DNA of 64,000 bases from assembly GCA_003402735.1 (NCBI GenBank), contig QQNE01000007.1, forward strand, positions 1-64,000, read 5' to 3'. Source of the DNA: Verrucomicrobiota bacterium (lineage in GTDB: Bacteria > Verrucomicrobiota > Verrucomicrobiia > Verrucomicrobiales > DEV007). Each line of letters begins with the position of its first letter. Position 1 is the stretch's first letter. Positions 7,615 to 12,813 of the stretch are shown here, piece by piece. The notes beneath the pieces were generated by a model that was not told the origin of the DNA, ran no database searches, and saw nothing but the letters and a program-made list of their open reading frames with translations. Position numbers and translations under genes: made by a program.

Positions 7615-9378
7615 ATGAAAGCTAAGCTCGCATGTCGGTTTCGTTTTGCATTATTGGCCGGGCTGTGCTGGATCGCCGGAGCCAGCGCTCAGGAATTCGG
7701 TCCGCTTCCCAAATACACATTGGCCCAGGTCGGCACCGGACCCGCCTTGTTGATCGGCGTGGGAGATTATGACGGTGCCGGATCGGTCTTCGGACGGTTG
7801 GAGGGAATCGGCAAGGACTTGGAGGCCATCGAGGCCACGGTGCGCAAACTGGGTTGGAAGGAGGTCACGGTGTTGCGGGATCCGACGAGAGATAAGATGC
7901 GGGAGGCGGTGGACAGCTTCGGGGCCAGAGCGAAAGACTCTCCCGGCGCGAGTTTCTTTTACTTCAGTGGGCACGGCGTCTTGCAGAACCGACTGAATTA
8001 CATGATCCCGGCCCGGGCTCAGGTGCGCACCCGCGAGCACTTGGCGGACTATGCCATTCCAGTGGAAGATGTGCTCGGCTTTCTCGAGAATGAGGGCAGT
8101 GGTCCTGCGTTGGTCTTCATCGATGCCTGCCGCAACAACGATCTGCCGGCCGGGGGCAAATACGGGGGCGCGAATCTTCTCTTGAGCCGAAGAAACGGCC
8201 TCTTCATCGGCTACGCCACGGCTGAAGGAGAGATCTCCAATATGACCGAGAAGGGCAGCTTTTTCACCCGGAGTTTGGCTCATCGGCTCCTCACGCCGGG
8301 AGAAAGTTTGGACAATCTCTACGGAGGGATCATCGAGGACGTGGAGGCGCAATCGAAAGCGATGAAGGCGGAAGCGATTCAGCCACCGGAAAAGCTGAGC
8401 GCCTTGCGCATCATCCTCGAAATGGTCCCGGGCGGTGAATCCCCGGAAATGGCCCGCTTGCGTGCGGAGGTGGAGAGACTGCGGAAGGAGCAAGGGAGTG
8501 GACAGACGGTGGCCATGGTGAAAGCCACGCCCTTAGACCCAACGCTGTTGCCCAATAGCAATCCACAAATCACCACTGCGACGGCAAAAGCTCCCTTCAC
8601 CAATCCCCTCGGCATGAAATTCGTGCCGGTGCCGGGGACGAAGATCCTCATGAGCATTTGGGAGACGCGGGTGCGGGATTTCCGGGCGTTTCGTGCCGAC
8701 ACGGAGGGAGAATCGGATCATCCCGTGGTGGAGGTGAGCTGGGAAGATGCCCAAGCCTTCTGCCAGTGGCTGAGCCGCCGGGAAGGGAAGACCTACCGGC
8801 TGCCGACGGATCATGAGTGGAGCCTCGCGGTGGGGATTGGTGGCTGGGAAAACGCCACGGCCAGCCCGGCGGACAAGGATGGGGTGATCGAGGGCGTGTA
8901 TCCCTGGGGAACCACGTGGCCGCCGCCGAATGGAGCGGGGAATTATGACTCCAGCTTCAACTGCGACCGATTTGACGGCACCGCACCTGTCGGTTCGTTT
9001 GCCGCCAATCCGTTAGGGCTTTTCGATCTCGGCGGGAATGTTTGGGAGTGGTGTGAGGATTGGTATCAAAGCGGCCAAACTCTTCGTGTTCTGCGTGGTG
9101 GTTCGTGGTGCAACTCTACGGTGATCAGTCTCCGGTCTTCGCGCCGCAACCGCGACGCTCCGACGTTTCGGTACGACGACATCGGGTTTCGGGTTGTGTT
9201 GGAGTTGGGGAGTGGCGGCAAGGCGTCCAGCATTTGGGGATTTGGCCTGATGCCAGGTGGGGACACGCTCTGCCTGGCCCGTGCGCCCCGGTCCAGGGTG
9301 AATTGGACACCTAACCCGCCGTCCCCGGCCCCGGAACCTGCCGGGGAAAAGACGCGATCCAGCCGGGTGGCCGCGTAA
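7615..9378 (+). CDS. Exported caspase (peptidase C14) - FGE-sulfatase/C-type-lectin fusion; DGR target 1
   Basis: 587 aa; signal peptide MKAKLACRFRFALLAGLCWIAGASA; 'SFFYFSGHGV', 'LVFIDACRNND'; FGE landmarks 'NPLGMKFVPVPG', 'VSWEDAQAFCQWLSRREGKTYRLPTDHEWSLAVG', 'GLFDLGGNVWEWCEDWY', 'RVLRGGSW...GFRVVLE'. Confidence 0.93.
   Translation: MKAKLACRFRFALLAGLCWIAGASAQEFGPLPKYTLAQVGTGPALLIGVGDYDGAGSVFGRLEGIGKDLEAIEATVRKLGWKEVTVLRDPTRDKMREAVDSFGARAKDSPGASFFYFSGHGVLQNRLNYMIPARAQVRTREHLADYAIPVEDVLGFLENEGSGPALVFIDACRNNDLPAGGKYGGANLLLSRRNGLFIGYATAEGEISNMTEKGSFFTRSLAHRLLTPGESLDNLYGGIIEDVEAQSKAMKAEAIQPPEKLSALRIILEMVPGGESPEMARLRAEVERLRKEQGSGQTVAMVKATPLDPTLLPNSNPQITTATAKAPFTNPLGMKFVPVPGTKILMSIWETRVRDFRAFRADTEGESDHPVVEVSWEDAQAFCQWLSRREGKTYRLPTDHEWSLAVGIGGWENATASPADKDGVIEGVYPWGTTWPPPNGAGNYDSSFNCDRFDGTAPVGSFAANPLGLFDLGGNVWEWCEDWYQSGQTLRVLRGGSWCNSTVISLRSSRRNRDAPTFRYDDIGFRVVLELGSGGKASSIWGFGLMPGGDTLCLARAPRSRVNWTPNPPSPAPEPAGEKTRSSRVAA
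9085..9219 (+). repeat. DGR variable repeat 1 (VR1): 24-bp 5' constant, 75-bp variable core (9109-9183), 36-bp 3' constant (candidate IMH)
   Basis: Constant flanks identical to VR2 (24/24 and 36/36). The core differs from VR2 at 25 positions; 19 have A in one copy and the other 6 have no A in either, so all are compatible with an A template. Confidence 0.9.
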
Positions 9379-9406
9379 GGATGCAAGTCCCGAACGTCAC
9401 CCGGCT
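9361..9406. terminator. Inverted repeat between convergent genes, candidate bidirectional terminator
   Basis: Perfect 9-bp arms AGCCGGGTG (9361-9369) / CACCCGGCT (9398-9406), 28-nt loop, spanning the ends of target 1 and avd. Confidence 0.4.
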
Positions 9407-11173: not shown

Positions 11174-12813
11174 CCGCCACTCCCCAACTCCAACACAACC
11201 CGAAACCCGCCGTCGACGCTCCGATACGAAGGAGTGACGAAGTCGCGGTTCGATGACCGGAGATAGAACTCCGTACTGAGGAACCACGAACCACCACGCA
11301 GAACACGATATTGGTTACCACCTCCGTCATCAAAACCGCGTTTCTTGAAGTCCGCGACGACATCGGCGTCATTCATGGAGTCCCGATACCAATCCTGGCA
11401 CCACTCAAAGACATTCCCGCCCAGATCGTAAAAGCCGAAGCGGTTCTCCTGATAACTGGCGACGGTGGCGGTGCGCTCGGCGCCGTCGTTGTAACCCGGA
11501 GTGATCTCTTTCCAATTGGCCTTTGGGAGCGTCTTGATGAGCGACTGGTCAAAGTAGTTCCCGCTCACCTTGCTGAGATCGTTGCCCCACGGATATTTGC
11601 CCACGCTGCCCACGGCCAGGGACCATTCCGCATCGGTGGGCAGGCGGTAAGCGAGGCCTTTTTCGGCGACTTGGGCACTGAGCCAGGCGCAGAAAGCATT
11701 GGCCTCATCCCAGCTCACGCAAACCACGGGGTGATCCCCGGTTTGGGAGAAGCCGGGGTTTTCCCAGGAGGCGGAGCTATCCAGTTCCCACGAGGTTTTG
11801 TCGCCTCCCTCCGCTGTCTTATTGACCTTGTAGACATACGCTCCACCGGTCTGCCGATAGTTGGAGGCGGAGGCGAAGGCACGGAAATCACGGACCCGAG
11901 TTTCGGTGCGGCACAGAAGGACGCCGGGTTTTCCGGGCAGTGGGATGAACTCCAGCCCCAGGGAGTTGACGAACGGGGCGTCCTTGGTGGTGGCGCGGAC
12001 GCGATCGGCGAGGGTGAGAGGCGGTGAAGGCGGCGGGTTTGGAGCATTGCCCGCGACGAAACGGTGTTCATTCAACAAAGAGCCGTAGGCGAAGGGGAGT
12101 TGCCGTTTGTTGGTGGCTCCATAGACCTCTGCGGCGACGCGTCGCAGCAATTCTTCGAACGTGCCGGGTTGGCGGATCTCCCGAGCCAGGATTCCGGTGA
12201 AGATGGAGTTTTTGCTGGCACTGAGAGGAGCCAAGGAGACGGTACCGTGTTTGGTGGCATACCAGACGAGGGTTTCCGGGGCTTCGACCTTGATTTCTCC
12301 CAGTCCCTTGGCCCGAAAGCCTGCGATCTTGGCGGCGGGTTCGCCCGGAAGCAGGGTGCCCGGATCGCGGCAGGCATCCAGGATGACCACCCGCAGGCTG
12401 GCCTGGGTGCCTTCCAGGAGGTTCAAGACATCGGAAAGAGCCACGGCTTGGCGTTTGACCTGGCTGGTGTATTCAGCGTTGAACTCCACGGGGAGGAGGT
12501 AGTTCACCCCATCGGTCTCCATCCCGTGGCCGGAATAGTAGACAAAGGCCTCGTCTTGTGAACCGAGCGTGGCGCTGAACTCGTGGAGCAGGGCATCGAT
12601 TCGATCCGCCGAGAGATTGGTGTAAGCCTGGTTCCCGTGGATCGAGACGCCGATGGCGCGGAAGGATTCCACCATGCTGGCGGCATCGACGGTGCAGGCA
12701 TCGAGACGTTGCAAGGTGGTGTAAGCGGCATTGCCGATGACCAGGGCGCGTCGTTCGGCGAAAGCAGCGCTGAGGAAGGTTAGGAGAATGAGAGAAAGTT
12801 TGAGCAGGTGCAT
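11170..12813 (-). CDS. Exported caspase (peptidase C14) - FGE-sulfatase/C-type-lectin fusion; DGR target 2
   Basis: Likely start MHLLKLSLILLTFLSAAFAERRALVIGNAAYTTL at 12813; 'AFVYYSGHGMETDG', 'VVILDACRDPG'; FGE 'NSLGLEFIPLPG', 'VSWDEANAFCAWLSAQ', 'FGFYDLGGNVFEWCQDWY', 'YRVLRGGSWFLSTEFYLRSSNRDFVTPSYRSVDGGFRVVLELGSGG'. Confidence 0.93.
   Translation of the reverse strand: MHLLKLSLILLTFLSAAFAERRALVIGNAAYTTLQRLDACTVDAASMVESFRAIGVSIHGNQAYTNLSADRIDALLHEFSATLGSQDEAFVYYSGHGMETDGVNYLLPVEFNAEYTSQVKRQAVALSDVLNLLEGTQASLRVVILDACRDPGTLLPGEPAAKIAGFRAKGLGEIKVEAPETLVWYATKHGTVSLAPLSASKNSIFTGILAREIRQPGTFEELLRRVAAEVYGATNKRQLPFAYGSLLNEHRFVAGNAPNPPPSPPLTLADRVRATTKDAPFVNSLGLEFIPLPGKPGVLLCRTETRVRDFRAFASASNYRQTGGAYVYKVNKTAEGGDKTSWELDSSASWENPGFSQTGDHPVVCVSWDEANAFCAWLSAQVAEKGLAYRLPTDAEWSLAVGSVGKYPWGNDLSKVSGNYFDQSLIKTLPKANWKEITPGYNDGAERTATVASYQENRFGFYDLGGNVFEWCQDWYRDSMNDADVVADFKKRGFDDGGGNQYRVLRGGSWFLSTEFYLRSSNRDFVTPSYRSVDGGFRVVLELGSGG
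11173..11307 (-). repeat. DGR variable repeat 2 (VR2): 36-bp 3' constant (11173-11208), 75-bp core (11209-11283), 24-bp 5' constant (11284-11307)
   Basis: Same constant flanks as VR1; lies directly before the target 2 stop codon. Confidence 0.9.

What the first reader, a model, noticed from the sequence alone, without database searches (positions are those of the whole stretch)
7615..12813. DGR diversifying two exported caspase-FGE proteins, one on each side of the RT
An RT with DGR signature motifs (LPIGNLTSQ, YTDD), an Avd-like protein and two flanking genes with paired variable repeats form one locus. Both targets combine an N-terminal signal peptide, a caspase-like protease with its His/Cys dyad (SGHG, DACR), and a C-terminal FGE-sulfatase fold whose last about 45 residues are the diversified segment. 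This implies a hypervariable ligand-binding surface coupled directly to a protease outside the cytoplasm. FGE-fold DGR targets and caspase-linked conflict-system DGR targets have been described; a predicted exported caspase-FGE pair flanking one RT is the unusual part.
Basis: partly seen in the sequence, partly recalled or inferred. Interest (0 to 1): 0.95.

Follow-up and report, generated by a model that had tools for sequence, protein, structure and literature searches.

The report
Hypermutated exported caspases, mutation template missing
A lake bacterium (Verrucomicrobiota) carries a gene-mutating retroelement that rewrites the tips of exported caspase-like proteases, but in this genome the element's template is missing and one target gene is fused to the spot where the template should be.

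Summary
The RT falls in the DGR clade with BPP-1. 27 of 28 positions that differ among the genome's three VRs (T1, T2, and a remote T3 on another contig) are A in the template of a same-genus species (p=9e-22). A second T2 allele differs at 15 of 38 VR residues but only 3 of 509 elsewhere, every VR change at an A-bearing template codon: natural hypervariation. T1's VR is followed not by the stop codon and hairpin of true targets but by the TR's own 3' flank, so T1 is fused to the template site (deletion or assembly collapse). Intact relatives (L112, L042) have the same two-target layout plus a TR with 100% A-specific mismatches. Caspase-CLec DGR targets, exported targets, multi-VR cassettes and remote targets are each known; the conserved exported caspase-FGE version in Verrucomicrobiota is a variant. 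Likely role (inferred): envelope sensor-protease with a variable ligand surface.

The parts
7615..9378 (+). T1: exported caspase-FGE target (587 aa), fused to the template-repeat 3' flank
   Evidence: Pfam C14 4.8e-22 and FGE 2.3e-40; signal-peptide-like N-terminus, SGHG at 118, DACR at 170
9085..9218 (+). Diversified repeat core (VR) of T1
   Evidence: VR alignment with T2 and T3; variable columns match A in sister TR
9220..9396 (+). TR-type 3' flank (AAGG..., GATGCCAGGTGGGG...) directly after the T1 VR; the TR itself is missing
   Evidence: Alignment score 101 to L039 TR flank, 10 to T2 VR flank; shuffled maximum 18
9397..9753 (-). bAvd accessory protein (118 aa)
   Evidence: PF22296 6.3e-15; NF033474 DivGenRetAVD 67.9 bits, below its cut-off of 80
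9971..11173 (+). DGR reverse transcriptase; likely ATG start at 10022
   Evidence: PF00078 7e-17; PDB 8ub7 1e-32; tree
11170..12813 (-). T2: exported caspase-FGE target (547 aa), stop codon directly after the VR, convergent with the RT stop
   Evidence: Pfam; signal peptide and dyad; AlphaFold pLDDT 89, matches MALT1 and FGE structures; hypervariable allele P0001
11174..11307 (-). VR of T2
11098..11143 (-). Hairpins GGGCCGCCAGGCCC and TCCGCGAAGCGGA plus T-tract downstream of the T2 VR; similar element in T3 and relatives, absent after T1
   Evidence: analogy to the BPP-1 hairpin/cruciform, PMC3240598

Best explanation
The locus is a diversity-generating retroelement of Verrucomicrobiota that hypermutates a small family of exported caspase-FGE proteins: T1 and T2 flanking the RT and T3 elsewhere. 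Shown: DGR-clade RT, Avd, adenine-directed VR variation, and in-species VR hypervariation of T2. In this assembly the template repeat between T1 and avd is gone, and T1's VR is joined within a shared 37-nt 3' segment to the template's own flank, either by VR-TR recombination (about 300 bp deleted) or by an assembly collapse; T1 as read is no longer a normal homing target. Inferred: Avd and RT copy an A-rich template, mis-copying adenines, and replace the last ~40 codons of the targets; the mature proteins sit outside the cytoplasm, where the variable C-type-lectin-like (FGE) face binds changing ligands (phage, neighbouring cells or glycans) and controls the attached orthocaspase.
For: RT clade and motifs; Avd; 27/28 VR-variable columns are A in the same-genus TR, p=9e-22; same-genus genome G002 has TR-VR pairs with 15/15 and 21/21 mismatches at TR A; L040, L041, L042, L112 14/14, 23/23, 17/17 and 18/18, 12/12 and 19/19; T2 allele P0001 15/38 vs 3/509 changes, all at A codons and reachable keeping the third base, p=1.5e-16 and 1.1e-8; two-target layout with TR in L112 and L042; T1 flank is the TR flank; T1 homologues P0122 and P0123 end at the normal VR stop; signal-peptide rule positive in 59/72 caspase-FGE relatives, 0/36 kinase-FGE proteins, 0/144 internal windows.
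Against: No TR was found in the genome; T2's VR is identical in contigs L048 and L049. Signal peptides rest on a home-made rule, not SignalP. P0001 was compared at protein level only. No protease, ligand or export test was possible.
Confidence: 0.8

Rival explanations
1. The TR is present in the living organism and the T1-TR fusion is a metagenome-assembly collapse of two nearby direct repeats; the DGR is complete and active.
For: Relatives carry the TR at exactly this place; L106 shows the same fusion while same-species contigs L042 and L107 keep the TR; L048 is identical to the window but ends at window 9301, close to the TR site; T2 varies within the species, so a template existed recently; RT, Avd and T1 frames are open.
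Against: The shared exact segment is only 37-38 nt, shorter than the k-mers of most final assemblies (own knowledge); the fused contig is 76 kb; the T2 VR was assembled through without trouble in L048, L049 and the window.
Confidence: 0.5
2. The fusion is a real VR-TR recombination that deleted the template; the DGR is newly dead and T1-T3 are frozen variants.
For: Joined product as expected of homologous deletion; same state in L106 and perhaps L056 and L068; the genome's other DGR (C109) also has a diversified, A-poor copy at its template site; no TR or spacer elsewhere.
Against: No decay of RT, Avd or T1; very recent T2 rewriting; assembly only 82% complete.
Confidence: 0.45
3. The VR differences are ordinary divergence of duplicated FGE genes with no retroelement involvement.
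For: FGE proteins are abundant paralogues in these genomes.
Against: Variation confined to template-A positions and codon positions 1 and 2 (13, 13, 2), p=9e-22, with constant ends; 15/38 vs 3/509 within species.
Confidence: 0.02
4. Functional rival: the variable FGE face serves adhesion or kin/particle recognition, and the caspase is a housekeeping envelope protease not gated by ligand.
For: Most cellular DGR targets are exported and have binding or adhesion domains (PMC8144416); some targets of this DGR carry no caspase: L211 carries an exported N-terminus of another kind.
Against: Caspase-FGE is the recurrent form: most of the listed T2 homologues carry both domains and the dyad is kept.
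Confidence: 0.35

Closest known systems
Bordetella phage BPP-1 DGR (brt, Avd, TR, mtd)
   Same: RT clade, motif PIGSLTSQ vs PIGNLTSQ, Avd, VR at the target's 3' end, hairpin downstream of the VR
   Different: Cellular, several targets, avd on the opposite strand, targets are exported caspase-FGE proteins; TR missing here
Cyanobacterial DGR variable proteins with N-terminal orthocaspase and C-terminal CLec, with remote targets (PMC7517822)
   Same: Caspase joined to a DGR-diversified CLec/FGE domain, remote targets in the same genome
   Different: Most of those are predicted cytosolic; here export is a clade trait, in Verrucomicrobiota, with no NTPase
Thiohalocapsa PB-PSB1 conflict-system DGRs (PMC10907252) and VMAP/MoxR ternary systems (PMC7159879)
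   Same: Two targets per RT, FGE/CLec VRs, peptidase effectors, at least one target with a signal peptide
   Different: Those join the VR domain to STAND/vWA proteins with separate peptidases; here caspase and VR domain are one exported protein
Treponema denticola TvpA (PDB 2y3c)
   Same: FGE-type VR domain, sequence match 3.4e-11
   Different: No caspase matched

Membership tests
Diversity-generating retroelement | RT of the DGR clade with IGxxxSQ motif | tested here: met
Diversity-generating retroelement | Accessory protein (Avd) | tested here: met
   PF22296; NCBIfam model below its cut-off
Diversity-generating retroelement | Template repeat with A-specific mismatches to the VR, in this genome | tested here: not met
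   No TR in window or assembly; assembly incomplete. Met in same-genus and related loci. So the window is filed as DGR-derived and template-less as assembled, not as a complete cassette
Diversity-generating retroelement | VR at the 3' end of a CLec/FGE-fold target | tested here: met
   (T1 has an extra 52-aa tail)
Diversity-generating retroelement | Initiation region and hairpin after the VR | tested here: inconclusive
   Present after T2 and T3, absent after T1; a simple stem scan over all relatives separated VR from TR flanks only weakly
Diversity-generating retroelement | Adenine-directed hypervariation in nature | tested here: met
Caspase/orthocaspase (C14) | p20 fold with His-Cys dyad | tested here: met
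   activity not testable
Formylglycine-generating enzyme (as enzyme) | Fixed catalytic cysteines | not tested
   By recalled human FGE numbering they would fall inside the VR, where residues vary; no formal alignment was made

The most novel reading that the evidence does not exclude
Exported DGR-diversified caspases form an envelope-located, ligand-gated protease defence or recognition system, and recurrent VR-TR recombination deletes the template so that a lineage freezes one set of specificities: a built-in way for DGRs to switch off.
Probability: 0.15. Interest if true: 0.75.

Novelty: new variant of a known kind. Interest (0 to 1): 0.5.

Why it matters
Caspase-like proteases in bacteria are usually discussed as cytoplasmic death effectors. 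A conserved family in which the protease is predicted to be exported and its sensor face is rewritten by a retroelement would put a hypervariable receptor-protease outside the cell membrane, and the in-species T2 alleles make the diversification testable in lake samples. The recurrent VR-TR fusion is also a practical warning: DGR surveys from metagenome assemblies can miss templates or call fused targets.

Tried and rejected
T1, T2 or T3 as template of the others: rejected, mismatches not A-biased. TR elsewhere in the genome: none. TR of the second DGR (C109) as donor: the core differs and is itself A-poor. VR change between L048/L049 and the window: none. A general 3' hairpin scan separated VR from TR flanks only weakly. 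Rfam gave only a tRNA in the window. PADLOC gave generic caspase and RT models, no defined system. Phage DGR RTs are all under 60% identical, with no sign of a prophage origin. A script comparing P0001 failed because a gapped row was read; repeated correctly.

Full report
Observation. The window encodes, in order, an exported caspase without FGE (5112-6950 -), T1 (7615-9378 +), a bAvd protein (9397-9753 -), a reverse transcriptase (9971-11173 +, likely ATG 10022) and T2 (11170-12813 -). T1 and T2 each carry Peptidase_C14 and FGE-sulfatase domains well above Pfam cut-offs, with SGHG and DACR dyad motifs and signal-peptide-like N-termini. Their C-terminal repeats are 81% identical over 140 nt in inverted orientation. 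The RT's best solved relative is entry 8ub7 (a DGR RT by my own knowledge; listed only as 'Reverse transcriptase'; 1e-32). In a 41-row tree it lies with BPP-1 and other DGR RTs, apart from group II RTs at 100/100; the motif is PIGNLTSQ against PQGGxxSP in the group II set.

Is the variation adenine-directed? The genome holds a third caspase-FGE gene (T3) with an 85% identical VR on contig C106, near unrelated genes. The same-genus genome G002 keeps the template repeat upstream of its avd (L039). Of 28 columns that differ among T1, T2 and T3, 27 are A in that template; of 102 constant columns, 5 are A (p=9e-22; no other base is enriched). Within G002 two targets differ from the template at 15/15 and 21/21 template adenines. 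Across 92 scanned sequences, 40 contain TR-VR pairs with at least 80% adenine mismatches. A metagenome protein, P0001, is a second allele of T2: 15 of 38 VR residues differ, against 3 of 509 elsewhere (p=1.5e-16). All 15 fall on codons with A in the first two template positions (p=1.1e-8), and all can be reached keeping the third base. So T2 has been rewritten in nature very recently. L048 and L049, two other metagenome contigs of the species, show the same T2 VR as the window.

The missing template. No TR exists in the window or the assembly, nor the spacer that precedes it in G002. None of the three VRs can be template for another. In relatives with a template beside avd, the VR ends GGC-TAG (stop), followed in several by a hairpin and T-tract, and the TR ends GGC-AAG followed by a different flank. 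T2 and T3 have the VR type. T1 has the TR type: its flank aligns to the G002 TR flank with score 101 (shuffled maximum 18) and to the T2 flank with score 10. T1's closest homologues, P0122 and P0123, end at the normal point. T1 is therefore joined to the template site, with the spacer and the template core missing. The junction lies in a 37-nt segment that VR and TR share. L106 shows the same state, while contigs of the same species (L042, L107) keep the TR; L056 and L068 look similar but are less certain. Whether this is true recombination or a repeated assembly error cannot be settled without reads; I put it near even. Recent T2 rewriting means a template existed recently.

The intact form. 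L112 has the window's layout with a template: target (VR), TR, avd reversed, RT, second target reversed, with 12/12 and 19/19 adenine mismatches; L042 has it with the TR on the other side. Signal-peptide-like starts occur in 59 of 72 caspase-FGE relatives, 0 of 36 kinase-FGE proteins and 0 of 144 internal windows by the same crude rule. Named relatives in public genomes are mainly Verrucomicrobiota for the closest RTs.

How it most likely works. Shown: DGR machinery genes, adenine-directed variation, hypervariation of T2 in nature, domain make-up, and a confident model (mean pLDDT 89) matching MALT1 paracaspase and FGE structures. Inferred: export, ligand binding by the variable FGE face, and control of the caspase by it. 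Candidate ligands are phage, other cells or glycans; nothing here discriminates between them.

Comparison. Caspase-FGE proteins were counted in 2012 (33 of 671 bacterial metacaspases, PMC3501461). Orthocaspase-CLec DGR targets, remote targets and some exported targets are reported in cyanobacteria (PMC7517822). Two-target conflict DGRs, including one target with a signal peptide, are known from Thiohalocapsa (PMC10907252). Signal peptides or TM segments are common on cellular targets (PMC8144416), and 28.6% of DGRs in one survey have several VRs (PMC6642488). The combination seen here (exported caspase and variable FGE in one protein, flanking the RT, conserved across a Verrucomicrobiota clade) is a variant I did not find described in the papers I could read; supplements could not be read.

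Noticed in passing
L038 (own contig C109) 7580-9640: A second, different DGR in the same genome (FGE target, HRDC-like ORF, RT with PIGSLISQ/YMDD). The copy at its template site is A-poor and diversified too (20 mismatches, A 15% vs 11%), unlike the A-rich TR in same-genus L046.
   Followed up: partly
5112-6950: Exported caspase paralogue without FGE, N-terminus 78% identical at DNA level to T2, flanked by 43-nt inverted repeats at 5025-5067 and 7011-7053.
   Followed up: no
14047-16477: OmpA, DUF4384 and DUF4062+DUF4384 genes beside the locus; OmpA, caspases and DUF4384 also lie beside the DGR in L041, and OmpA in L090. Possibly a shared envelope module.
   Followed up: partly
L041:698-1264 and L090:142-711: ECF sigma factor genes just upstream of the caspase-FGE target in two relatives.
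   Followed up: no
9233-9396: The TR 3' flank is conserved between genomes (motif around GATGCCAGGTGGGG), likely part of the DGR RNA.
   Followed up: partly
13398-13599: 101-nt tandem duplication (97% identical) next to a GxxExxY protein (12891-13310).
   Followed up: no
L211 (G002 contig C27): A target of the same DGR with an exported non-caspase N-terminus (P0192), so the variable FGE end is attached to other exported proteins as well.
   Followed up: partly
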